This document shows positions 63 through 21,825 of a stretch of DNA of 27,572 nt, piece after piece. Positions within the stretch are counted from its first letter, which is position 1. The number at the start of each line of letters is the position of its first letter. A program made the position numbers and the translations under genes. The notes below the pieces were generated by a model that was not told the origin of the DNA, did no database searches, and saw nothing but the letters and a program-made list of their open reading frames with translations. Source of the stretch: a virus; IMG/VR virus record IMGVR_UViG_3300004097_001413, positions 1-27,572 of that record. One strand, 5' to 3'.

Positions 63-3000
63 TTATAAGTTACCATCTATGTAGTTACCCACATCGTTAC
101 CCATTATCTTCTGTAGATATCTACCACTAGCACTATCATTACTTTCATACAGCTGTTGTATGGTAGATTCTGTAGCACCTAGTGATTGAGTATGTAACCA
201 CTGGTTGAACTTTTCAGGCTTACCTCCACTAGTAGTATAGCTGTCCATGAAATTCATATAGGTATCTTTATCATAGTTACCTGACTGTATCATACGTTTA
301 GCGCCTCTACCTAGGTCAGTGATTTTATCAGTACGTAAGCTATCAAAGCCTTGTGTACGATAGAAACTCTGTACTGCAATAGACTCGTCTAAAGTCTTAG
401 TACCTAATACCCTTGCAGCCTTAGCGAACCAGCTGATGTCACTTAGGTCAGTAATTAACGAGCCGTTACCTGTAGTACGTGAGCCTGCCATGATTGCACC
501 TACTCCCGCCAGAGGTCTATTAACTCCATTATGTGCCAAGCTATCTGCCATTACCTGCCCAGCATTTACACCTTGACTCAAGTCACTAGCAGCATTGAAG
601 ATGTTACCTACAAACTTAGATGCCAGTGACCACGCTGGTACTTCATCAATACTAGTAGGGATCAAGAAAGGAGTACGTGGATTCAAGTCACCTCTAGTAT
701 ACAACTCCAGCCCTTCACCGAACAGTGGCTTAGTGAAGTTACTAGCAAGTCCATACAGTATCCACTCACTGTGGTTCTTTCCTGTAGCAGTAGTAATACC
801 TGTGTAGAAGTCATTACCATCTTGTGAGTTAAGAGATATATGGTCGTTCAGTGCTTTGAACCCTGGCACTGATTGCACACCGAACATGCCAGCTTGTATA
901 CCCATCATAGACGCCACACCTACAGCATCCTTATTACCTACCTTACCCAGTAGAGACTGTATTAAGTTAAACTGATAGGTCTGGAATAATCCTATAGCTT
1001 GACCTGCAAAGCCTTGGAAGATAGTAGGACGTTGGGCACTAACATAGTTACCGTGTACTCTGGTAGTATAGGTACGCAGTGTACTAGCACGGAGTGACTG
1101 GTCAGTAATACCAGCAGCATCCATTACTAAGTCAGCCTGTCTAGCTGCTACAAACTTAACAAAGTCCTCCATCCAGTCAGCAGGACTAGCAGCAATGTTA
1201 ACCATCTTCTTACCGCCTTTAGCTAACTGTGCAATCATAGTGTCAGCATCTTGTGTTACATCAAGAGTGATATCATCTACTACTTGACGCATCTCACGAA
1301 CTACGTTAGTTATGATACCTTGGTCACGGTAAGACTTAAGTAATGCCTTACCACTTTCCCCGAAGTAATCTTTAACTGCTTGCATCTGCAACTTAATATT
1401 ACTGCCCATTCCAAACGCTGTATCAGGTACTGTAACATGTAACCCTTTAGCTACCTGCTGTGCCTTAATTGCAGGAATAGATTTCATCAGAGCATTCATC
1501 TCAGGTACTGACATTATAGGCATACTCATAGCATTGATCATAGGCTGTATGTAATCCAAGCGTAGCATCATTGTAGCAGCTATGCCATTAGCCTTAGGTA
1601 CTATACTTCTAAGCTTCTGGTCTGTCATGTTAGGAGATGTACGTAGCATGTTACCTGTCTGCCCTTCATATACTTTAGGTAAGCCATAGTGATCCATGTA
1701 CTTACTCATCTCTTCGTAGTTACCTGTACGACTTGCAGAGCTAAACGCTGACCCTAACCCTTGGAAGATAGCAGTAATAGTTTTATCAATCGCCTGCTGT
1801 CCATCTCTCCATGAGTTACCAGTCTCCTTAGATGTACGGTTCAGCATAATGTTCTTAGTTTCACGGAATGGGGTAGTAATAGGCTGCTGCTTACCTGCAC
1901 CCAGTGTACCATACGTCTGTGAAACTCCATCCATTTGATCTAGTGCTGCGAACTCTTCACCGTACTTAAGCTCAGTAAGGTTATCCACAGTACCTTTCCA
2001 TTCACGTGCCATAGAATCTACATAGTGCTGTACTAGGTTAGCATTAGCTTCAGGCGCTACATCCCAATTAACACCTTTACGTGTAAGGTCTGCATTAGAC
2101 TGGTACTCATTGAGTGAGAACTCTTCTATATACTCCCCGCGCTCCTTGAACCCAGCTTCCATATCTTCCTTGGTACGAATGTTAATGCTGTCTCCGAACT
2201 GTGCACGTACCTGAGCTTCCTTCTGTGCTAACTCTTGTGAGGTATTAGCACCTATAATACCTTTCTGGTTGTGTGACCATACTTCATTATTAACAGGCTC
2301 TACATAGAACCGATGCTTGTACTTCCTAGCATCTAGCCCACCAGGGTACAGTACATCTGCACTTAAGTTACTAGAGATTCCGCGAGCAGATGCAGCTACT
2401 TGCTTAGCTTCTACAATCAGAGCATTAGCACTTACCTTAGCTCTCCAGAAACTGGCAACATCAGGACTCTGAATAGAAGTTACCTGCTCATCAAGCATTG
2501 TACCTAGCTTAGTTAAATTACTAGGAATGAAGCGCTTCTGGTTTACTATCTTAGCTACCAGTTCGCTAACTTCTCTACTCCATAAAGAGTTCTCAGTACT
2601 AAGCAAGTCAAACAACTTATTACCTGTAGCTGATCCTGTTAACTTCTCAATATTTTTAAGTGAGATAGCTATCTGCTCTTCATCAGTAGATTTAATTAGC
2701 CCTTGCATGTAACTAGCTTGAGCTTGTCCATCAGGCAGTACAGGTGAAAACTTGTAGAAGCGCTGACGTAACTTACTATCTAGTGCATTCAACTCCATGA
2801 TACTGGAAGGGTTAGCTTGTACACGTGTAGCTGCACCAGCAATAGCTGTCTGTATTAACTCATGCCCCTTCAGTGTAGTAAGCTCATTGAACTTGGCAAT
2901 AGATTGTGCCTTGCTTAAGCCACTACCATACTCAGGTGCAAAGGTACGGAGTACACCAGTTATCTGAGTATTACGTGTAATGTCTTGTAGGTCACCATTA

Positions 3001-5543
3001 CCGCCATACTTCCAGCTAGGTTCAGGTGCAGTCTGTAGTAAGTTAGACTGAGTGATTCCATCTCCCATATCATCTAAGCGTTTAAGCAGTGTATTAATGC
3101 TATCATCTACTACTTCCAGAACTTTAGTGTTCTGCGCAATTGAGTCAGCCAGTGCTTCAGCTCCACCCTCACTAGCATCTACTGGGTTCTTATAGAATAT
3201 CTTAGCTACTGTCGGCTTAGTAGGATCATTGGATTGCGTCCAATACTTAGTACTTTTAGCACCTTCACCTAACTCTAATGCAAACACTTCATCTGTATCT
3301 ATCATACGTGCAATGTCACTAGTAGTGTAGTTGTGTGTCTTATTAAGTTGGCGCTGGGTAAGGCGTTGAGCAGCAGTTGATTTAAATGCAGTATACAGTG
3401 CATCAAAGTCTGTAAGTACCGCTTCATCAAATTCACCATCTAACTTCCGTACACTACCATCAGGCATAGTAATTGAAGCTTTACCTTTCCACCCACCTAG
3501 TACCTCACCATGTAACTTGTTCATCATAGCAAAGTTGTCCCAGTTAAATGCTACTTCCTTTTTAAGCTTACGCTTACTTTGGCTAGCTGCATAGAAGTGG
3601 GCGCTGGCACTCATAGGATCAGCACTAAGTACAGAGAAGTTCTCAAGATTAGTAGTAGTACTGTAATCACCAGCTATTACATTATCTCCACGCATGACAA
3701 CATTACCTCTGTCTGCCATTGTAGGTGACCACTGTGACTCCGTGTAAATATTACCACTGTTCAAACCTATTAAGCGCTGTGACTCACCTAGTCTAGACTT
3801 AAGCGCTCTGTTATCTTGAAACAGTTTACGAGTAGCAGCACCAATAGACTCAGCGTTACTACGCATCTTCTTATCAGCAGCATTGAACTGTGCCCACGCA
3901 TCAGCCATTAACTCCATAGGGTCATTCAGGTAGGCTTCTGTTTTCTGTAATTCTGCAATACGCTGGTAGTCAGTAGGGCTTATAGTCTTCTGTGCTAGTA
4001 TACGCTCCATTGCTACTCTGTTACGTTCTACGACTGCCCAACTACCTGGACGTTGTATCTTGGACAGTGCTATCATTTCATTGCGGATAGAGGAGAATAC
4101 TTCTGAGCTGAATATCTGACCTAGTGCTACAGTATTACCATGTCCTATCTCATGGCGTAATGTACCTACTAAGTGGGCAGGATCTAGAGCATCAGTAATT
4201 CCACGTTCATTTATAAGCTCACGGTTAAGTAACTGCTCACGTATACGAGGTGCATCACCTGTAATACTAACCCCTCTAGAGTTCGCAAACCCATTCAAGA
4301 ATCCGCGCTGTACAGCATCCTCAGGGTCATACTTAGTACCAAAGTGCTTACTACCTATAGCAGCTAAGTACTCATCAGCAGTGTCTAATATTTCAATCGG
4401 CTGAGCTAGTGGGTCAAATAAGAAATCATGGTCGTCATACTTACCTATTGAGTTAGCATTACGGAAAGCATCAGCAACTTGGTGCTTATCGCCTTTCTTG
4501 ATAAGTGCTACAATTGCAGGTGTAAGGTGTCCATCAATCTCACGTCTACCTAGAGCATTAGTACGTGTACCTGCTTCACCTACAAGTACAGCAACTTCTT
4601 CTACTAGGTCAGCATTAAACTCCTTATCACGGCGTTGAGCTTCCTTAAGTGCTGCACCAGTAAGACCTTCTAGTCTAGCTTCAGCGTCTTTCTGTTTAGC
4701 AGCTAACTGTACAATTTTATTACCTTGGTTGAAGCCTATACGGTTAGTTCTACTATCTAAGCTGATAAGCTCCTTGTTTATTGCATTATGCTCTTTCTGT
4801 GCACCATCAATAAGTGAGTTGATAGCACGGTTATTTACTGCGCCATATACTGCACCCCCTAGTGTAGTACCTATACCAAGCCCCATAAAGTAACCATCTT
4901 TCTGGTCATACATTGCTTCAAAGTAACCTAGCTGATTCTGGTTAACAGTGACGTGCTGGTTAGTAGCCATTAGTATAGCTGTTTCGGCAAAGGCAGTTTC
5001 AATAGCTGCTTGATGAGCACCTTGTTTTACAGCACTAGCTAGACGCTTGGAACGATTTGCTACGTGCATAGTATCTTCTAGTATCTCTGCTCCTATCTTC
5101 TTAGAGGCAGAAGCAGGTACTAGTATTTTACGTATAGCTACAGCTGCCAGATTCTTAGAATCACTAGCACGTGCAGCAGTCTGTGCATACTTAGCAGCTT
5201 TAAGTCCGAGAGTACCTGGTATTAGTGATGAAGCTACATAACCTACACCATCAATAAACGCTTTATTATCTTCATAGTAATCAGCAGTATCTTCCCAGTC
5301 CCATGACTTTAGTAAGTCTTCAGTACGTATCTGTTCTACATCTGCGCCAAACATATTAGTAATAGCTATACCTGTATTGACAAGTCCTACGCCCCCACTT
5401 ACTACAGATGCAGCTAACCCGTGAGTCAGTGCATCTCCTAAGCTAGCAGTAGATCCTTCCATCTCAGCATTAAAATCAAACGTACTAGTATAGGTATTAG
5501 GTTTAACACTAAGCTCTAATAGCTCTTCTCTAGACATACTCAT
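63..5543 (-). CDS. Giant internal virion / DNA-ejection protein with HEXXH metalloprotease motif (gp16-like)
   Basis: This encodes 1,826 residues from an ATG just past the stop of the preceding gene, with GGAG upstream. The longer reading needs a TTG at 5573 without a ribosome-binding site. Size and last place in the ejection-protein cluster match T7 gp16-type proteins, which leave the capsid and help build the envelope channel. Glycine-rich hydrophobic segments near residues 34-66, 96-118 and 217-240 could enter membranes. Residues 464-468 read HEIGH, and NDPMELMADAWA follows with E544, the layout of gluzincin zinc proteases (two His, catalytic Glu, third Glu ligand). The C-terminal third has phrases such as TIFQGFAGQAIGLFQTY, which I associate with other podovirus giant virion proteins. 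I see no lytic transglycosylase motif. The virion role is fairly sure from context; proteolytic activity is inferred from motifs. Confidence 0.85.
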   Translation of the reverse strand: MSMSREELLELSVKPNTYTSTFDFNAEMEGSTASLGDALTHGLAASVVSGGVGLVNTGIAITNMFGADVEQIRTEDLLKSWDWEDTADYYEDNKAFIDGVGYVASSLIPGTLGLKAAKYAQTAARASDSKNLAAVAIRKILVPASASKKIGAEILEDTMHVANRSKRLASAVKQGAHQAAIETAFAETAILMATNQHVTVNQNQLGYFEAMYDQKDGYFMGLGIGTTLGGAVYGAVNNRAINSLIDGAQKEHNAINKELISLDSRTNRIGFNQGNKIVQLAAKQKDAEARLEGLTGAALKEAQRRDKEFNADLVEEVAVLVGEAGTRTNALGRREIDGHLTPAIVALIKKGDKHQVADAFRNANSIGKYDDHDFLFDPLAQPIEILDTADEYLAAIGSKHFGTKYDPEDAVQRGFLNGFANSRGVSITGDAPRIREQLLNRELINERGITDALDPAHLVGTLRHEIGHGNTVALGQIFSSEVFSSIRNEMIALSKIQRPGSWAVVERNRVAMERILAQKTISPTDYQRIAELQKTEAYLNDPMELMADAWAQFNAADKKMRSNAESIGAATRKLFQDNRALKSRLGESQRLIGLNSGNIYTESQWSPTMADRGNVVMRGDNVIAGDYSTTTNLENFSVLSADPMSASAHFYAASQSKRKLKKEVAFNWDNFAMMNKLHGEVLGGWKGKASITMPDGSVRKLDGEFDEAVLTDFDALYTAFKSTAAQRLTQRQLNKTHNYTTSDIARMIDTDEVFALELGEGAKSTKYWTQSNDPTKPTVAKIFYKNPVDASEGGAEALADSIAQNTKVLEVVDDSINTLLKRLDDMGDGITQSNLLQTAPEPSWKYGGNGDLQDITRNTQITGVLRTFAPEYGSGLSKAQSIAKFNELTTLKGHELIQTAIAGAATRVQANPSSIMELNALDSKLRQRFYKFSPVLPDGQAQASYMQGLIKSTDEEQIAISLKNIEKLTGSATGNKLFDLLSTENSLWSREVSELVAKIVNQKRFIPSNLTKLGTMLDEQVTSIQSPDVASFWRAKVSANALIVEAKQVAASARGISSNLSADVLYPGGLDARKYKHRFYVEPVNNEVWSHNQKGIIGANTSQELAQKEAQVRAQFGDSINIRTKEDMEAGFKERGEYIEEFSLNEYQSNADLTRKGVNWDVAPEANANLVQHYVDSMAREWKGTVDNLTELKYGEEFAALDQMDGVSQTYGTLGAGKQQPITTPFRETKNIMLNRTSKETGNSWRDGQQAIDKTITAIFQGLGSAFSSASRTGNYEEMSKYMDHYGLPKVYEGQTGNMLRTSPNMTDQKLRSIVPKANGIAATMMLRLDYIQPMINAMSMPIMSVPEMNALMKSIPAIKAQQVAKGLHVTVPDTAFGMGSNIKLQMQAVKDYFGESGKALLKSYRDQGIITNVVREMRQVVDDITLDVTQDADTMIAQLAKGGKKMVNIAASPADWMEDFVKFVAARQADLVMDAAGITDQSLRASTLRTYTTRVHGNYVSAQRPTIFQGFAGQAIGLFQTYQFNLIQSLLGKVGNKDAVGVASMMGIQAGMFGVQSVPGFKALNDHISLNSQDGNDFYTGITTATGKNHSEWILYGLASNFTKPLFGEGLELYTRGDLNPRTPFLIPTSIDEVPAWSLASKFVGNIFNAASDLSQGVNAGQVMADSLAHNGVNRPLAGVGAIMAGSRTTGNGSLITDLSDISWFAKAARVLGTKTLDESIAVQSFYRTQGFDSLRTDKITDLGRGAKRMIQSGNYDKDTYMNFMDSYTTSGGKPEKFNQWLHTQSLGATESTIQQLYESNDSASGRYLQKIMGNDVGNYIDGNL

Positions 5544-5544
5544 A

Positions 5545-7383
5545 TTACTGTACTCCGCTACGTACTTGTTCAAGTGTACTAAGTTTATTAGATTTCTGTA
5601 TCATCTTGTGAATAGCCTGATCCCAGTGAGTTTTGTTTTCAAGGTTCATAGTAGTACCTCCTATGCCTGCACCGCCAAGTAGGATAGCTGGCAAGTTAGC
5701 ACTTGTAATACCTACACCACTTTTAATGTTAGTTGTACGTAGTACTGTGTAGTAGTTAGCTAGCCCTTGTGTGACAGTATCAATACGTTTCTGCGTAGAG
5801 GCATCCATTACTAATCTACCGAATGAATCTGTAGTACCTAACTTAGACAGGTAATCCACCGCACCGTCTACTGTATCCATAACACTTACTAGAGGATCTT
5901 TACCTGCACTAAGGCTAAGGTCTATTGACTTCCACTCGTCACTAGTAAGTACCTGCTTAAAGTCATCAGAGATGTCCTTACTGTAAGGGTAAGTAGGGTC
6001 AGTCAGTATCTTATTAAGGTCAGGTAGTAGGATTGTACCTGCCTTGATTGCAGCAGTGGCATCAGTTTTCATACCTTCTAGTCCAGCCGCAAAGAAAGTA
6101 GATTGAGTCTTAGGGTCTTTCAGTGCTTCAATCTGCTCAGCGTACTCTTTCTCATACTGTTCACGGTTCTGAGGATCACTTACTATCTTCTGATCACGCA
6201 CGTTACGAGCTGTAGCTTTAGCTGTGCTTACACCTGCATCAATTAGAGTCAGAGCTAAGTTATCTTTGTCATCAGTCTGTATCTGCTTCTCGCGCTTGTT
6301 CAGTGCTAATTGTGCGAATTGAGTAGTAGTACCTGTTTGCCCACGATTCTTCCAGAAAGTTTGACCACGTACAGTAGCAGTAGCTGTATTAGCAAACGGG
6401 TCACTATTATCTCTGATGAACTGCTCAGCTTCTGCGTCATCTTCAGTGTTATCACGTATGAATGTGTGCCAGTCTTCAGTAACACCTATCTTCTGTTGAG
6501 TGTCCATCTTACTCTTGATAGCGTTAGACTGTGACTGTTGCGCGTGTAACTTAGTTTGGAGTGAGCCTAGGTTCTCACGTGTACCAAGACCAAGACTATT
6601 CAAGTACTTAAACTCAGCTTCATACTCAGCAAGTCGTGTACTGTCCAGCTCAAGTCTATCCATAAGTACTTGACGATCAGCAAGTGTAACATTTCTACCT
6701 GACTGTAATAGCTTAGTAGCAGTCTCTGCACGTACTAGTCCATCAGCAATTACTGCACGTGTTAAGGCTGTACTATCAGAGGCATACAAGTTATTAGCTT
6801 TCTGCACAGCTGTATAGGTTTGAGTAGCTATTACCTGTCTATTGTTAGCAGCAGTTAAATTACTTCTTGCTTGGTTCAGTCTATCAGTAGTTGCCTTTTC
6901 AAGCGTCATACGTTTTAAACCGCCTAAGAAAGAAGTGTCACTTTTCAGTGCATCTAACTTAGCAGAGTACACATCTACTTCATTACTATAACGTTTAATG
7001 TTCTCAGCAACTACTGGGTTATTAACCTGCTCATTGTACTGTGTACGTGCAGGTGCATTGAATTGTTCAGCAATTTCAGCAGTAGTTACTGTAACGCCCG
7101 AAGCTTTCATAATACCATCAGCTTCATTTCTAATAGACGCATCAATGTCCGCAGCTATAGATGCTAGCTCAGAACTATTAGCTATTACATCTTCACGATG
7201 CCCAACCATGCTAGTAGTGATATCTTTAGCATTGTAGTTAGACTCTTGTACTGCTGCACGAGTAGCCACTTCTTCATCAGTTGTATTAATTATAGCATTA
7301 GTAGTATCTATCTGAGCTTGCTGATTAGCCTTTAACTCTTCAAGCCCTTGTAGAAACGATAAGTTATTTGATTGTGTTTCCAT
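5545..7383 (-). CDS. Internal virion protein, alpha-helical (gp15-like)
   Basis: The protein has 612 residues and starts at an ATG preceded by AGGAAT. It is rich in Ala, Gln, Asn, Asp and Thr, with long stretches that look helical or coiled-coil (about residues 60-300 and 380-450), and has no signal peptide or catalytic motif that I recognise. It sits between the gp14-like genes and the giant gp16-like gene and is the first gene after promoter cassette A, so it is probably the middle ejection protein that forms part of the inner core and channel. The giant gene starts one base beyond its stop, so the two are translationally coupled. The assignment rests on position, size and composition rather than on recognised sequence similarity. 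Confidence 0.7.
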   Translation of the reverse strand: METQSNNLSFLQGLEELKANQQAQIDTTNAIINTTDEEVATRAAVQESNYNAKDITTSMVGHREDVIANSSELASIAADIDASIRNEADGIMKASGVTVTTAEIAEQFNAPARTQYNEQVNNPVVAENIKRYSNEVDVYSAKLDALKSDTSFLGGLKRMTLEKATTDRLNQARSNLTAANNRQVIATQTYTAVQKANNLYASDSTALTRAVIADGLVRAETATKLLQSGRNVTLADRQVLMDRLELDSTRLAEYEAEFKYLNSLGLGTRENLGSLQTKLHAQQSQSNAIKSKMDTQQKIGVTEDWHTFIRDNTEDDAEAEQFIRDNSDPFANTATATVRGQTFWKNRGQTGTTTQFAQLALNKREKQIQTDDKDNLALTLIDAGVSTAKATARNVRDQKIVSDPQNREQYEKEYAEQIEALKDPKTQSTFFAAGLEGMKTDATAAIKAGTILLPDLNKILTDPTYPYSKDISDDFKQVLTSDEWKSIDLSLSAGKDPLVSVMDTVDGAVDYLSKLGTTDSFGRLVMDASTQKRIDTVTQGLANYYTVLRTTNIKSGVGITSANLPAILLGGAGIGGTTMNLENKTHWDQAIHKMIQKSNKLSTLEQVRSGVQ

Positions 7384-7915: not shown

Positions 7916-9302
7916 CAGCGTCTCCTTGTAGGTTGTTATGATAGTCTTCACTACCACGTGAGATTGTCTTATTCTCTACATCTATCCAAGCTCTATAAGG
8001 ATCATAGTCACCGATATTTATGTCTTGGACAGAGCTAGCTCTGGCTGTAGGATTGTAGCCACTAGATACATCAGTCTGTATCGTAGGTGCTTGAATTGTA
8101 GAACTACTACCATATGTACCATTTGACTCCCCTTGACTAGCGGGGTCAATCTCTCTACCTAAATTATCAAGTAGTGGGGCTGAAGTGACCTCGACTCCTA
8201 GCTGCTCACTTAGCAGTTCTGCTAGTGTAGAGGTAGATTGTACATTAGAAGCTATAGTGTTTACAGGTGCTGTAGCTGATGGATTACTAGTAGTAGCTGT
8301 AGCATTAGAAAGTGTAGGAGCTGATATAGTTGGTATGCTGTTAGTGCCAGCACCATTACCATTACCTGTTCCTGCATCTATCTGATTCATTACACTTTCA
8401 AGTGTGGCTATACTGTTAGCATCAATGTTACCATTTTCTAATAAATTAGCTAATTGCCCTGTAATGTACTGCGTGTCATTAGGGTTAACTAGTGTATCAG
8501 ATGTATTAGTATCTATAGTAGATGACTGTGTTGCACTTTCTGCTATAGACTCTAGGTTAGTAGCTGACTGCCCTGATTGTTGCTGTGAAGTGTCCGTACT
8601 ACCTGTAGTATCAGTAGTTCCAGTTTGCTGACCAGTTGTAGCTGTCTGCGTATTATTAGCAGTATCTGTTGCAGCGGTCGTATCTGTGGTAGATGTTACG
8701 TTCTCAGTCCCAGCTTGTGCAGCGGCTACAGCATCTAGTATCTGTTGATTCTGAGATAACTGTAGTGATGCGCCAGCAGATGCAGCTTCAGCAGTAAGAT
8801 CATTATTAAGCAACTGCTCAGTTGTTGAACCAAAGCTACCTGTACGTGTACCTACGTTACTTATGTTAGACTTACCATCACTGAGTATCTGGCTCATAAG
8901 CGCAGTGACTTGTTCTTGCCCACTACCATTACCTGCTAAGATAGCGTTAAGTGCAGCAGTTGACTCATCTGTACCACGTGTAATAGACTGTTCCTGCGCA
9001 GCCTGCGAGTTCGTAGTTTCATTACCTACTGAAGCCTGTGACCCTTGCTCAGCTGTAACTTGCTGCTGGGTAACTGCTTCTTGAAATTCTTCTGAGCTAA
9101 GTAACTGCTCCAGTGTACTCTGTAGTTCAGAGGATGAAGTACCCTCTTCAGTTTGAGTTGTAAGGTCAGTCAGTAATTGCTCGAAGCTGGTCTGACGCGT
9201 AGGAGTTTCTACTACATCAATAGCATTATCTCCTGCTTTATCAGCGTTGTAAGCACCTACTGCTACAGTACCTACAGTTGCTGCTACGGCTCCCCAAGTC
9301 AT
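7851..9302 (-). CDS. Internal virion protein with hydrophobic N-terminus and low-complexity body (gp14-like)
   Basis: The protein has 483 residues. The start overlaps the stop of the cupin gene as ATGA and has AAGGAT upstream. The N-terminus begins MTWGAVAATVGTVAVGAY, a short hydrophobic Ala/Gly/Val segment like the start of T7 gp14, which enters the outer membrane during ejection. The rest is very rich in Ser, Thr, Gln, Asn and Ala, with an almost pure Thr/Asp/Gln/Gly tract around residues 205-245 and Gly/Asn linkers near 315, so much of it is probably disordered. The last 60 residues look more ordered and charged. Position in front of the gp15/gp16-like genes supports the role; direct similarity is limited to the N-terminal pattern. 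Confidence 0.65.
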   Translation of the reverse strand: MTWGAVAATVGTVAVGAYNADKAGDNAIDVVETPTRQTSFEQLLTDLTTQTEEGTSSSELQSTLEQLLSSEEFQEAVTQQQVTAEQGSQASVGNETTNSQAAQEQSITRGTDESTAALNAILAGNGSGQEQVTALMSQILSDGKSNISNVGTRTGSFGSTTEQLLNNDLTAEAASAGASLQLSQNQQILDAVAAAQAGTENVTSTTDTTAATDTANNTQTATTGQQTGTTDTTGSTDTSQQQSGQSATNLESIAESATQSSTIDTNTSDTLVNPNDTQYITGQLANLLENGNIDANSIATLESVMNQIDAGTGNGNGAGTNSIPTISAPTLSNATATTSNPSATAPVNTIASNVQSTSTLAELLSEQLGVEVTSAPLLDNLGREIDPASQGESNGTYGSSSTIQAPTIQTDVSSGYNPTARASSVQDINIGDYDPYRAWIDVENKTISRGSEDYHNNLQGDADAYTEEQRRLAAERGAVLIGI

Positions 9303-9817
9303 AATGGATCCTTATCACCTACTGGTGAAATTGTTAAAGTAATAGGAAGTTTGCAGTCATCATAGTCCTTCGCTATAATCTCCTGCTCAATCTCTTCCAC
9401 GTTGGTTGAATCAGTACTATGAAAGGTAGTCCACACAGTCTCTTCTAAGCAGTAAACTACTCGTTGTGTACCTGCACTAGATACAAATGTAATGGGAGCC
9501 TCATAGCACTGCTCTCCCTCAAATGTAGCCACTATGCACTTGCCTTTAGATATTACATTGACGTGTGCATGCTTGTGAATCTTACCTACTACAAGTGCAC
9601 CTGCTGGCATAGTAAACTCTCTACCATACTGGCTAGGTGCAAAGTGGTGAGATGTAGGAAAGTCCTCAATACTCAACTCCCTATCATCTCCCTCTAGTGC
9701 CATAGCAATTAACTGTATACGCGCTCTAGCTTCCATGTCCTTACCTAGTCCAAAGAAGTCAGTAGGTAAAGCATTAGGGCTACGTATAAGAGGTGCTATA
9801 GCTGCTAGCTTGTTCAT
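9299..9817 (-). CDS. Cupin-like (RmlC-type jelly-roll) protein
   Basis: The protein has 172 residues; GGGAGA precedes the ATG, and the start overlaps the endolysin stop by four bases. Residues 65-135 read like a small cupin barrel: a Pro-Ala-Gly turn, GKIHKHAHVNVISKG with three histidines (81, 83, 85), then YEAPITFVSSAG and a closing histidine at 133. These could bind a metal as in metal-binding cupins. Similar short cupin proteins occur among structural genes of other short-tailed phages, where they are thought to be virion-associated. Substrate and activity are unknown, and I cannot tell whether the barrel binds metal, sugar or only another virion protein. Confidence 0.65.
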   Translation of the reverse strand: MNKLAAIAPLIRSPNALPTDFFGLGKDMEARARIQLIAMALEGDDRELSIEDFPTSHHFAPSQYGREFTMPAGALVVGKIHKHAHVNVISKGKCIVATFEGEQCYEAPITFVSSAGTQRVVYCLEETVWTTFHSTDSTNVEEIEQEIIAKDYDDCKLPITLTISPVGDKDPL

Positions 9818-10281
9818 GCAATCTCCCAGTGGAATAAGTCCACGAATCGGTTATGTAGTATACCATCAGCATGTTGCCACTTACCTCCCCAACGCAGCTC
9901 TATACCATGGCGCTTTGCAGCTAACTGCATTAGCATATCTAGCCTAGCGTACTGCATGTATATCCAAGTCTTTACATTAGCAGTAGTAGTGTTAGTAGTA
10001 GCTGCAATTCTATGTAACTGACGCTCATCACACCATAGGTACTTGTGAGTATTGTGGTAAATCACTAAGTCCACTGCCTCACTAGGAAAGCGGTTGTGCT
10101 TACCTTTAGGGAACTTCAGACGGGACTCCCCACTCTCATATAAGGCATCCTGTTCCGCACGCTTTCTATGCCCACAGGTGACACCTATATCCATTTCAGC
10201 TAGTACTTCCATTACAATAAGCTTGAGTACTGGTGCACATGTACTTAACTTAGCCTCACTGTTATCACTTAATTTGTTCAC
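9814..10281 (-). CDS. Endolysin, M15/VanY-type L-alanyl-D-glutamate peptidase
   Basis: The protein has 155 residues and starts at GTG, with a perfect AGGAGG six bases upstream. It shows the M15 peptidase layout: CGHRKRAEQDALY near residues 36-48, then KHNRFPSEAVDLVI giving zinc ligands H62 and D71, and FVDLFHWEI giving D148 and H151, as in the T5 endolysin. Such enzymes cut the L-Ala-D-Glu bond of peptidoglycan. There is no signal peptide, so export would need the holin encoded two genes upstream. Length fits a single-domain Gram-negative endolysin. A structural murein hydrolase is possible given the tail-gene setting, but endolysin is more likely. Confidence 0.85.
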   Translation of the reverse strand: MNKLSDNSEAKLSTCAPVLKLIVMEVLAEMDIGVTCGHRKRAEQDALYESGESRLKFPKGKHNRFPSEAVDLVIYHNTHKYLWCDERQLHRIAATTNTTTANVKTWIYMQYARLDMLMQLAAKRHGIELRWGGKWQHADGILHNRFVDLFHWEIA

Positions 10282-12385: not shown

Positions 12386-12733
12386 TTAATTATCTTTATC
12401 TACTTTCATTTTGCGTGTAAGCCATATCTGCATTAGGAATATACCCCTAGCACCTAAATGACCTGCTATACCACTACAAAAGAAAACTAGCTCTATGTTG
12501 AAATTTAAACTCATTGCAAGCAGTGCTGCTAGTACACCTGCAAATCCACTGATAAGGGTATCTACTACCAGTGCTAGGAAGCTAAATTTCTTAATCTCCC
12601 CTGAGCGCCATTTACCTAAATAACTCATTATTCCTCCAGCTGCTGCTAAAAGTACAATCCCTAGGTAGTGACTGCGTGACTCGTAAAAGTCCACTACCAT
12701 GCGTAGCAAAGTAGTTTCTGGTTCTTTTGCCAT
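12386..12733 (-). CDS. Holin, LydA-like (holin superfamily III)
   Basis: The protein has 115 residues from the ATG at 12733, which has AAGGAAGAG upstream; a longer GTG reading from 12766 is less likely. Three hydrophobic segments are visible (about residues 24-41, 51-76 and 82-104), the last carrying CSGIAGHLGARG, typical of LydA-type holins. The C-terminus is short and charged (RKMKVDKDN). Such proteins form lethal holes in the inner membrane and release or activate the endolysin. It sits alone between the fibre and nozzle genes, separated from the endolysin by two genes. A hairpin lies in its leader. Confidence 0.8.
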   Translation of the reverse strand: MAKEPETTLLRMVVDFYESRSHYLGIVLLAAAGGIMSYLGKWRSGEIKKFSFLALVVDTLISGFAGVLAALLAMSLNFNIELVFFCSGIAGHLGARGIFLMQIWLTRKMKVDKDN

Positions 12734-12752
12734 ATTCTCTTCCTTTGAAGCT

Positions 12753-12773
12753 GTAGGTACTTGCACTACCTAC
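12753..12773 (-). promoter_or_regulatory. Hairpin in the holin leader
   Basis: A perfect 7-bp inverted repeat (GTAGGTA / TACCTAC) with a 7-base loop lies between the fibre stop and the holin ribosome-binding site. On the minus strand it is not followed by T residues, so it is not a normal terminator. It could be an RNA processing or stability element or a translation control for the holin. Confidence 0.4.
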
Positions 12774-20001: not shown

Positions 20002-21795
20002 CTATATCCAATTAACGCCAGCTACCCATGTGATTTCACTTCGTAGGTTGTAGTGGTAATCGAGTAAAGTATTGTCACTAAGTAATGAGTACTTCAGTGG
20101 GTTATCAGGACGCTCACCCTTAGATTCCCACGTTCCATTATTGCCACCAATAGTATCAACAACTGTGTAGTCTTCTGGTATTTGGTCAAATACCCACTGA
20201 TGTAATCCATCGAACTTGATCCACGCAGGTAAGGCACTAAAAGAAGTTGCGTAATTTCTTAGCTTCAAAAACCAATCTATAGTAATAACTCCAGGTGCGT
20301 TACCTGTTACCATCTCAGTGCCATTAACTACTACGGAGATTTCACCAGCTGCATCACGTGAAAATACTAAGTGGTAAAACCCTGCCCCTGGTACTGGGTC
20401 AGTACTGACGTTAGTATCACCATCAATAGTGAATTGCACAATACCTGTGGATTTTATTCCAAGGTAGTCATTCAGACCATCAGCTCCCCAAAAGTAGTGA
20501 GACGTTGCCCCGTTCCAGTACCACATCACTTCACCTGAGAATGCACCATTAATTACAACTTGGTTATCAAGAATTACACCTGATGTTACATTAGATACAC
20601 TTGTTAGGTAGTGAGGATTGACGCCTAAGTCCAGTGCATCTTCAAGGTTCACTAGATTTAAGTTATACTCTTCATCAGCTAGTATAGTGTTAAATGTTTC
20701 ATTAGTATGAATGCTGTCGCCTGTATTCATCCAATCATTAGTTTCAAATGTATCTAGGTCACCATATATTCTAGGTACTGATGCAAAGCGAGTGTTGTAC
20801 TCATCTCTGAGTATTTCCCACATATCACCTAATTCTTGTGCTGTATCATTAGGACGTATCAGTAGTATTTCGTTACCTGTTACACCTGCTACTGCTAAGT
20901 CGTCAAGTAGCACTCTAGCGTCAGATGTAGCTTTAATCATTGCCTGACTCTTATCATTAGTACCTGTCATTATACGTGCATCAGTTACACCCATCTCGGT
21001 ATACCAATCTGCGATATTACGTACTAGTATATAGTCTCTAGTTGTTTGACCACTGTAAGCAAAGTTAATGACATCTAGGTAATCTGATCCTTGTACATCT
21101 GCAATATTTTTAAGTGCACCAGAGAAGCGGAATGAGCTAGTGAAGTTAGATAAACGGATGGTAGTGCTTTCTGTAGGTGTAGGATTTACTATCTCTACAG
21201 ATCCAAACTCACCTAACGCACCTGATGTATCAATGTTATCTATAGCTACTGGCTCAGTAATACTGAACGTGCCCCCGTCAGGCTTCTTCTCAAAGTAAAT
21301 CTTTGCAGATAACCAGTTCAATTCACCATTACCTATAATCAGTACTTCGCTCGAAGTACTACCTGAAACTTCTATACAAGACTGGCTAGGTGAGTATATG
21401 CTATCACTAATACTAGTAGCTGTACCATTTGTACTTGCAATGTTAGTTCCTGTATCAGGATGAAACCCCATGAACGCACGTGTAAATAAATTACGTAATC
21501 TACCAGCGTTGTGAGCAAGCATTGTTATAAAGTAAGTAGGTGATTGTGTATTACCTACCCCAGCAGTTAGACTGTCTAGTAGGAACAGTTGGCTACCTGT
21601 TAGTACTGTATCAACTGTTCCATCTCCAACAGGATCTACAGGATCTACAGGATCTACTGCGCCGATTACCTGCAAAGGTTCAAACACTATTCCAGCAGCT
21701 GCTGCTAGCTCTACTTGATTCTTAGCAAGTTGATGTAGTGCGCGCTTCAGTGCTAAGTCTGGCGACTGTAGAGAGGGTAGTATTACATGTTTCAT
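20002..21795 (-). CDS. Tail fibre / tailspike with SGNH-type esterase domain
   Basis: The protein has 597 residues from the ATG at 21795 with AGGAA upstream; a GTG at 21822 would add nine residues. After a short helical head and a DPV-DPV-DPV linker come the SGNH blocks: DSLTAG with nucleophile S75, YSGQTT (G249), GTND (N280) and DSIH (D360, H363). All four catalytic blocks are therefore present, so it is probably active, for instance removing acetyl groups from host surface sugars. About 150 beta-rich residues lie between blocks I and II, much more than in a minimal SGNH fold, perhaps a carbohydrate-binding insert. Residues 390-560 resemble a LamG/concanavalin-like sugar-binding domain (YHLVFSRDAAGEISVVVNG). 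It lies between terminase and portal, apart from the other tail genes. Confidence 0.8.
   Translation of the reverse strand: MKHVILPSLQSPDLALKRALHQLAKNQVELAAAAGIVFEPLQVIGAVDPVDPVDPVGDGTVDTVLTGSQLFLLDSLTAGVGNTQSPTYFITMLAHNAGRLRNLFTRAFMGFHPDTGTNIASTNGTATSISDSIYSPSQSCIEVSGSTSSEVLIIGNGELNWLSAKIYFEKKPDGGTFSITEPVAIDNIDTSGALGEFGSVEIVNPTPTESTTIRLSNFTSSFRFSGALKNIADVQGSDYLDVINFAYSGQTTRDYILVRNIADWYTEMGVTDARIMTGTNDKSQAMIKATSDARVLLDDLAVAGVTGNEILLIRPNDTAQELGDMWEILRDEYNTRFASVPRIYGDLDTFETNDWMNTGDSIHTNETFNTILADEEYNLNLVNLEDALDLGVNPHYLTSVSNVTSGVILDNQVVINGAFSGEVMWYWNGATSHYFWGADGLNDYLGIKSTGIVQFTIDGDTNVSTDPVPGAGFYHLVFSRDAAGEISVVVNGTEMVTGNAPGVITIDWFLKLRNYATSFSALPAWIKFDGLHQWVFDQIPEDYTVVDTIGGNNGTWESKGERPDNPLKYSLLSDNTLLDYHYNLRSEITWVAGVNWI
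21631..21657 (+). repeat. Three tandem copies of a 9-bp unit in the fibre gene
   Basis: Three exact copies of AGGATCTAC stand in frame and encode the DPV-DPV-DPV linker near the fibre N-terminus, just ahead of the esterase domain. The exact nucleotide identity suggests recent expansion by slippage. Confidence 0.9.
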
Positions 21796-21825
21796 ATTTA
21801 ATATTCCTATGTTGTGTAGCACTTG

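What the first reader, a model, noticed from the sequence alone, without database searches (positions are those of the whole stretch)
3912..4154. Zinc metalloprotease motif inside the giant ejection protein
HEIGH at residues 464-468 is followed by NDPMELMADAWA with E544, a layout that matches gluzincin proteases. T7-type gp16 proteins usually carry a lytic transglycosylase instead. A protease delivered into the cell with the DNA could mature the ejection proteins or attack a host defence or envelope protein.
Basis: partly seen in the sequence, partly recalled or inferred. Interest (0 to 1): 0.62.

Follow-up and report, generated by a model that had tools for sequence, protein, structure and literature searches.

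The report
Swappable protease in phage ejection protein
A short-tailed phage probably carries a zinc-dependent protease built into the giant protein it is thought to inject with its DNA; related phages lack it, carry a decayed copy, or carry a different enzyme (an ADP-ribosyltransferase-like domain), which suggests that this protein is a delivery scaffold for exchangeable enzymes.

Summary
HEIGH and MELMAD lie where stated, in a 1,826-aa late-gene protein. They are not chance: in an alignment of six proteins (window plus five relatives, about 26-39% identical, including Aeromonas phage P5), 14 of the 17 invariant columns across residues 241-600 fall in HExGH, SxxxRPxxW, Y and P-ELxAD. An AlphaFold2 model is confident from the HExxH helix to the second motif. 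Its best structural matches are M34 zinc proteases, with end-offsets that place H464 and E544 on the zinc ligands. Z is only 6.4, so the fold call is moderate.

The protease domain occurs at two different positions of the same scaffold. It is therefore dispensable cargo, which argues against obligatory self-maturation and favours a host-directed enzyme; the substrate is unknown. No lytic transglycosylase was found.

Zinc peptidases in injected phage 'polyvalent' proteins are known (Iyer 2017; N4 vRNAP). This is a new variant of that kind in a podoviral ejection protein. Ejection itself is inferred.

The parts
63..5543 (-). Giant ejection-type protein gene, 1,826 aa from ATG 5543 (TTG 5573 would give 1,836 aa)
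   Evidence: ORF and translation; full-length homologues of about 1,520-1,890 aa in the same position after a 570-640 aa gene; PHROG 16165, unknown function
3744..4301 (-). Zinc-metallopeptidase (zincin) domain, residues about 415-600 (ATG numbering)
   Evidence: 13-sequence profile match, residues 425-610 TTG numbering; AF2 core confident; VIA-align top rows M34 peptidases
4140..4154 (-). HEIGH, residues 464-468: predicted zinc ligands H464 and H468, general base E465
   Evidence: direct sequence; HExGH invariant in 13 sequences
4038..4064 (-). SxxxRPxxW motif, residues 494-502, shared by domains at both insertion sites
   Evidence: S, R and W invariant in 13 sequences
3930..3932 (-). Invariant tyrosine Y538, six residues before the third zinc ligand
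   Evidence: invariant in 13 sequences; role inferred only
3900..3914 (-). ELMAD (gluzincin ExxxD motif): predicted third zinc ligand E544 and D548
   Evidence: E and AD invariant in 13 sequences; end-offset of the structural alignment maps E544 to the zinc-ligand glutamate of the M34 fold
3498..3662 (-). Scaffold core element (ARYxWA-like, here SAHFYAA), which lies after the peptidase domain here but before it in the site-B relatives
   Evidence: core profile hit, TTG residues 638-692, iE 5.8e-5
261..1604 (-). Conserved C-terminal region of the scaffold (PHROG 16165; QRPxxFQGxAGxAxGLFQTY)
   Evidence: phrog_16165 E 8.6e-35, TTG residues 1324-1771; invariant columns
5545..7383 (-). Upstream 612-aa gene, probable partner ejection/internal virion protein
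   Evidence: synteny: a 570-640 aa gene precedes the giant gene in all relatives checked; no family match

Best explanation
The segment is a gluzincin-type zinc peptidase domain. H464 and H468 of HEIGH and E544 of ELMAD are the predicted zinc ligands, E465 the general base, and D548 a second-shell residue. It is carried as accessory cargo in the giant late-gene protein that this phage most likely packages in the head and ejects with its DNA. It most likely cleaves a host protein early in infection (a defence or envelope-associated target), with phages exchanging, losing or inactivating the domain as hosts change. Shown by computation: the motifs, their selective conservation, a model matching M34-type peptidases, two different positions in homologous scaffolds, decay, and an ADP-ribosyltransferase-like domain in its stead in another clade. 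Inferred: zinc binding, proteolysis, packaging and ejection, and the host target.
For: Motifs at the stated place. In six site-A proteins 14 of 17 invariant columns of residues 241-600 fall in the motif segment. 13 domains share HExGH, S..R..W, Y and E..AD. Profile-to-PDB search with 8 sequences: Ste24p, an M48 gluzincin, E 0.019, aligned at both motifs. With 13 sequences, 12 of 14 listed PDB sequences are zincins (Ste24p, lethal factor, PPEP-1/Zmp1), each weak (E 0.18-1.6). Pfam M48 2.2e-4 in one member, ATLF 0.016 in another. AF2 model: 10-residue blocks over 91-220 at pLDDT 71-95. VIA-align: the top nine rows are M34 peptidases, Z 6.4-3.8, best row 3.0 A over 94 residues. Range ends (88->673, 222->776) put model H101 (=H464) at 686 and E181 (=E544) at 735, the zinc ligands of that fold (ligand numbers from my own knowledge). 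Dispensable cargo: 12 intact, 2 decayed, 14 ART, 54 neither of 82. Two sites. Separate placements in the tree.
Against: Foldseek itself gives no significant match (best E 0.23; the lethal-factor fold ranks 40th), and Z 6.4 is below the level that secures a fold. The model's first 90 residues are unreliable, so the beta-sheet part of a zincin was not modelled. The best single row of the 13-sequence PDB search is not a zincin. No curated family reaches its cut-off. Ejection and virion presence are inferred. No host target is known. Self-cleavage is not excluded.
Confidence: 0.55

Rival explanations
1. The peptidase processes the ejection protein itself, or its partners, during head assembly or after entry, as proposed for P1 DdrB and other polyvalent proteins.
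For: Self-processing is the leading proposal for zincin domains in polyvalent proteins (PMC5512222). The domain sits inside a 1,826-aa polypeptide.
Against: 54 of 82 full-length family members keep the scaffold without the domain, and two keep a catalytically decayed copy. No second recognisable effector in the same protein needs release. N4 vRNAP with its zincin domain is packaged unprocessed (PMC5512222).
Confidence: 0.22
2. A zincin-fold domain that is now structural (assembly, packaging or membrane contact) and no longer a peptidase.
For: Decayed copies persist in L028, L030 and L130. In N4 the region containing the zincin domain is needed for encapsidation (PMC5512222).
Against: In the window's clade the catalytic residues are the most conserved ones while the rest of the domain drifts, which is the pattern of an active site.
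Confidence: 0.12
3. An envelope-acting enzyme that helps ejection across the cell wall, standing in for the lytic transglycosylase of T7 gp16.
For: No lytic transglycosylase found in the family or in the other window ORFs scanned. The giant protein is a plausible trans-envelope component.
Against: The best matches are protein peptidases, not peptidoglycan hydrolases. Most relatives manage without it. The window has a separate M15-type endolysin.
Confidence: 0.07
4. Chance HExxH in a helical structural protein, with no metallopeptidase fold.
For: One HExxH has P 0.019 in shuffled sequence; Foldseek E values are not significant.
Against: Both motifs co-conserved in 13 sequences at two scaffold sites; profile and structure comparisons converge on zincins.
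Confidence: 0.04

Closest known systems
Zincin-like metallopeptidase (MPTase) domains of phage and plasmid polyvalent proteins (Iyer et al. 2017, PMC5512222)
   Same: HExxH plus downstream Glu, embedded mid-protein in a large protein predicted to enter the cell with DNA; ART domains are used in the same class of protein
   Different: No match to any Pfam model in the present scans; HExGH / SxxxRPxxW / Y / ExxAD signature; carried by a podoviral ejection-type scaffold, not an RNAP, ParB or primase fusion; whether it falls in one of their 12 clades was not tested
Phage N4 virion RNA polymerase, C1 domain (PMC12633501)
   Same: Giant ejected virion protein with an HExxH domain; N4 has HELVH at 2228 followed by EAYADA near 2280
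   Different: Only a weak profile match (hhalign probability 37%, second-motif region only); no RNAP here
MEROPS M34 (lethal factor catalytic domain, Pro-Pro endopeptidases PPEP-1/PPEP-3)
   Same: Top structural matches over the two catalytic helices; zinc-ligand offsets coincide with the lethal-factor numbering
   Different: 15-22% identity, Z 6.4 at most, no significant sequence match; secreted proteases rather than virion proteins
MEROPS M48 (Ste24p/HtpX)
   Same: Profile search hits Ste24p at HExGH and HExxADA; Pfam M48 2.2e-4 in one member
   Different: M48 proteins are membrane peptidases; the window itself has no M48 match
T7 gp16 internal virion protein
   Same: Position of the gene and size class; presumed role in DNA ejection
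   Different: No lytic transglycosylase domain found; no sequence homology shown

Membership tests
Gluzincin metallopeptidases (MEROPS clan MA(E)) | HExxH with both His as zinc ligands and Glu as general base | tested here: met
   sequence motif HEIGH 464-468, HExGH invariant in 13 sequences; metal binding itself not tested
Gluzincin metallopeptidases (MEROPS clan MA(E)) | Third zinc ligand Glu in a downstream ExxxD motif on a second helix | tested here: met
   E544-xxx-D548, invariant E and AD; predicted helix
Gluzincin metallopeptidases (MEROPS clan MA(E)) | Zincin fold, including the N-terminal beta sheet | tested here: inconclusive
   Catalytic helices match M34 folds at Z 6.4; N-terminal 90 residues of the model have low pLDDT; Foldseek not significant
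Gluzincin metallopeptidases (MEROPS clan MA(E)) | Zinc-dependent proteolysis | not testable with these tools
   needs protein
MEROPS M34 | Significant sequence or structure similarity to lethal factor / PPEP | tested here: inconclusive
   top rows but Z < 8; ATLF 0.016 in one member; PDB profile hits E 0.21-1.6
MEROPS M48 | Match to the Pfam Peptidase_M48 model | tested here: not met
   one of 13 members at E 2.2e-4, not the window's own; the window has no M48 match
Polyvalent-protein MPTase | Zincin domain within a large protein delivered with DNA | tested here: inconclusive
   domain present; delivery inferred from gene order and family annotation only
Polyvalent-protein MPTase | Two or more disparate effector domains in one polypeptide | tested here: inconclusive
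   only one enzymatic domain recognised in the window protein; the rest of the protein has no family match
T7 gp16-type ejection protein | Lytic transglycosylase domain | tested here: not met
   no Pfam match in the window protein, 41 N-termini or 58 middle regions
R-S-E ADP-ribosyltransferase (domain of another clade, not the window) | Invariant R, S and E in an ART fold | tested here: met
   R53, S67, E112 invariant in 11 sequences; nearly all of the 50 structural rows shown are ART-fold proteins, Z 6.1-4.4; Foldseek alone not significant; NAD use not testable

The most novel reading that the evidence does not exclude
The giant ejection protein of this podovirus family is a delivery scaffold with exchangeable cargo positions: a zinc peptidase inserted at either of two sites, an ADP-ribosyltransferase in another clade, or nothing, so that the phage swaps injected host-directed enzymes while keeping the ejection machine. 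It would be a short-tailed-phage counterpart to interchangeable injected proteins such as the T4 internal proteins.
Probability: 0.4. Interest if true: 0.68.

Novelty: new variant of a known kind. Interest (0 to 1): 0.52.

Why it matters
If true, short-tailed phages use their DNA-ejection machine to deliver a protease, and related phages deliver an ADP-ribosyltransferase from the same scaffold. That gives a concrete, testable set of first-minute host-directed enzymes in cultivated phages (Aeromonas phage P5; the PaP2/PaMx group), and a way to ask which host proteins are attacked before any phage gene is expressed.

Tried and rejected
Pfam, PHROGs and NCBIfam on the window protein and domain: no family for the peptidase segment. 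Domain-only search of phage records: no relative. Domain-only scan of viral contigs with the window sequence found only the identical contig. Scan of prokaryote genomes with the site-A alignment found no relative. Foldseek against PDB and BFVD gave nothing significant. Direct profile tests against N4 vRNAP and P1 DdrB were inconclusive: hhalign 37% and 10%. A mutual-exclusion statistic for peptidase versus ART was not used as evidence, because the groups are separate clades. A MAFFT column difference alone was not trusted for the two sites; it was checked with core and downstream profiles. The idea that the protein carries the T7-type lytic transglycosylase was rejected. In the library search no paper on Aeromonas phage P5 was found, and the Tiera paper mentions no SDS-PAGE or mass spectrometry, so it gave no virion proteomics.

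Full report
Observation. The gene is on the minus strand, 63..5573 with a TTG start or 63..5543 with the ATG that directly follows the upstream stop codon (GGAGTACAGTAATATG). HEIGH is at residues 464-468 (window 4140-4154), E544 at 3912-3914 and D548 at 3900-3902, in NDPMELMADAWA. A lone HExxH would appear in 1.9% of shuffles of this protein, so the motif alone proves little.

Conservation. A tblastn search of annotated phages found Aeromonas phage P5 (31% in the matched pieces, 1,827 aa) and more distant C-terminal matches in Polaromonas phage Tiera, EBPR podovirus 3 and the Pseudomonas PaP2/119X/PaMx group. P5 has HEKGH and NPKELWADAFA at the same place. Scans of IMG/VR with alignments of these proteins gave well over 100 loci. 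In the window's own clade L008, L089, L090 and L091 also keep both motifs. In an alignment of the six, residues 241-600 contain 17 invariant columns, and 14 of them lie within 474-558 (TTG numbering): H, E, G, H, S, R, P, W, Y, P, E, L, A, D. The surrounding sequence is nearly free to vary. That is the pattern of an active site.

Fold. An 8-sequence profile of the domain finds Ste24p, an M48 gluzincin, at E 0.019, with both HExGH and HExxADA aligned. A 13-sequence profile returns 14 PDB sequences, 12 of them zincins: Ste24p, lethal factor and ten PPEP-1/Zmp1 sequences. None is significant alone (E 0.18-1.6), and the single best row (E 0.086) is not a zincin. Pfam gives M48 at 2.2e-4 in one member, and ATLF and SprT-like weakly in others. 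AlphaFold2 on a 7-row alignment models the helices from just before HExxH through ELMAD at pLDDT 71-95 by block; the first 90 residues are unreliable. VIA-align ranks six lethal-factor catalytic-domain chains first (Z 6.4-5.5, 2.6-3.0 A, 90-94 residues) and three PPEP chains next (4.7-3.8). Unrelated helical bundles follow at 3.8 and below. The ends of the aligned ranges (88..222 on 673..776) have offsets 585 and 554. If there are no gaps between those ends and the motifs, they put H464 (model 101) on residue 686 and E544 (model 181) on residue 735, which from my own knowledge are the first and third zinc ligands of that fold. Foldseek alone is not significant, and Z 6.4 is below the secure range. 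I therefore hold the fold at moderate-to-high confidence and the family (M34, M48 or a group of its own) as open.

Two sites on one scaffold. A second group (L021, L039, L041, L047, L054, L084, L087) carries the same kind of domain. Profiles of the two groups find each other and, apart from the decayed copies, nothing else in the family (E 7e-11 to 3e-6; hhalign 98.2%), and they share HExGH, SxxxR, W, Y and ExxAD. The position differs. A profile of the scaffold's ARYxWA core lies after the peptidase in the window (residues 638-692, TTG) and P5, but before it in the second group, where the peptidase separates that core from the next conserved element. Relatives without the domain have core and next element almost adjacent: in L033 the core ends at 563 and the next element begins at 569, while in L047 the figures are 562 and 752.

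Census and tree. Of 82 distinct full-length proteins (window included), 12 have an intact domain, 2 a decayed domain, 14 an ADP-ribosyltransferase-like domain and 54 neither. In the decayed copies (L028, L030, and the partial L130) the first zinc histidine, the general-base glutamate and the Asp of the second motif are replaced. A tree of the C-terminal 790 residues places the window's group as one clade of seven, one of which (L092) lacks the domain. The second group falls in two separate places, one of them (L047) inside a clade of domain-free relatives. The ART group is a distant clade. Gain, loss and decay have therefore probably all happened.

The alternative enzyme. In the PaP2/Tiera/EBPR3 clade a 145-residue segment (A7) has invariant R, S and E, and its AF2 model has mean pLDDT 78. 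Nearly all of the 50 best VIA-align rows shown are ADP-ribosyltransferase-fold proteins (KptA/Tpt1, ExoS, Arr, CDTa, PARPs), Z 6.1-4.4. This was not part of the finding but bears on function.

Function. That the protein is an ejection protein is inferred from gene order (a 570-640 aa gene, then this gene, at the end of the structural module) and from depositors' labels ('structural protein', once 'ejection protein'). There is no proteomic evidence here. Because most relatives keep the scaffold without the domain, it cannot be required for the family's ejection mechanism in general. Because no second effector is recognised in the same polypeptide, the argument that it frees other domains is weak. 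The ART-like domain carried instead in another clade suggests a host-directed enzyme. I give the cargo-protease-with-host-target reading about 0.55, self-processing 0.22, a structural relic 0.12, a cell-wall role 0.07 and chance 0.04.

Known context. Iyer et al. 2017 (PMC5512222) described zincin-like domains as the commonest domain of polyvalent proteins, linked the N4 vRNAP domain to lethal factor by profile, and proposed self-processing or effector roles. The N4 vRNAP structure (PMC12633501) notes the HExxH in its C1 domain. T4 internal proteins are a precedent for variable injected anti-defence proteins (PMC12373910). The kind of thing is therefore known. What appears new is this subfamily, its host scaffold, its two insertion positions and the alternation with an ART. 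I found no paper describing these, within an open-access library only.

Motif and layout: confirmed. T7-type gp16: analogy only, no lytic transglycosylase in the family. Maturation of ejection proteins: possible but not favoured. Attack on a host protein: favoured, unproven.

Noticed in passing
L006:633-771 aa and homologues (L004, L005, L052, L056, L059-L061, L068, L071-L073, L075, L077): ADP-ribosyltransferase-like domain (invariant R, S, E; ART-fold matches) in the giant protein of the PaP2/Tiera/EBPR3 clade of phages.
   Followed up: yes
L028, L030, L130 (middle region): Decayed metallopeptidase domains that keep the overall sequence but have lost several catalytic residues.
   Followed up: partly
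L007 / IMGVR_UViG_3300028844_003872: Contig 100% identical to the window in its best segment over the gene, but its ORF is broken near the C-terminus (stops earlier than the window's 1,836 aa); possibly an assembly error.
   Followed up: no
window 20002-21822 (-): 606-aa ORF between terminase and portal with a weak GDSL-lipase match (E 0.019); an unusual place for an esterase or tail-spike-like protein.
   Followed up: no
window 9814-10281 (-) and 12386-12766 (-): M15-type peptidase endolysin (phrog_465, 2e-23) and superfamily III holin (1.9e-16) placed among the tail genes.
   Followed up: partly
window 9299-9817 (-): Short tail fibre / adhesin-like protein (phrog_12032, 6e-35).
   Followed up: no
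L142 (phage N4 gp50, residues 2228-2337): N4's HExxH domain shows EAYADA and an NRAL segment that align weakly with this family's second motif and its NRAL; a hint of distant kinship.
   Followed up: partly
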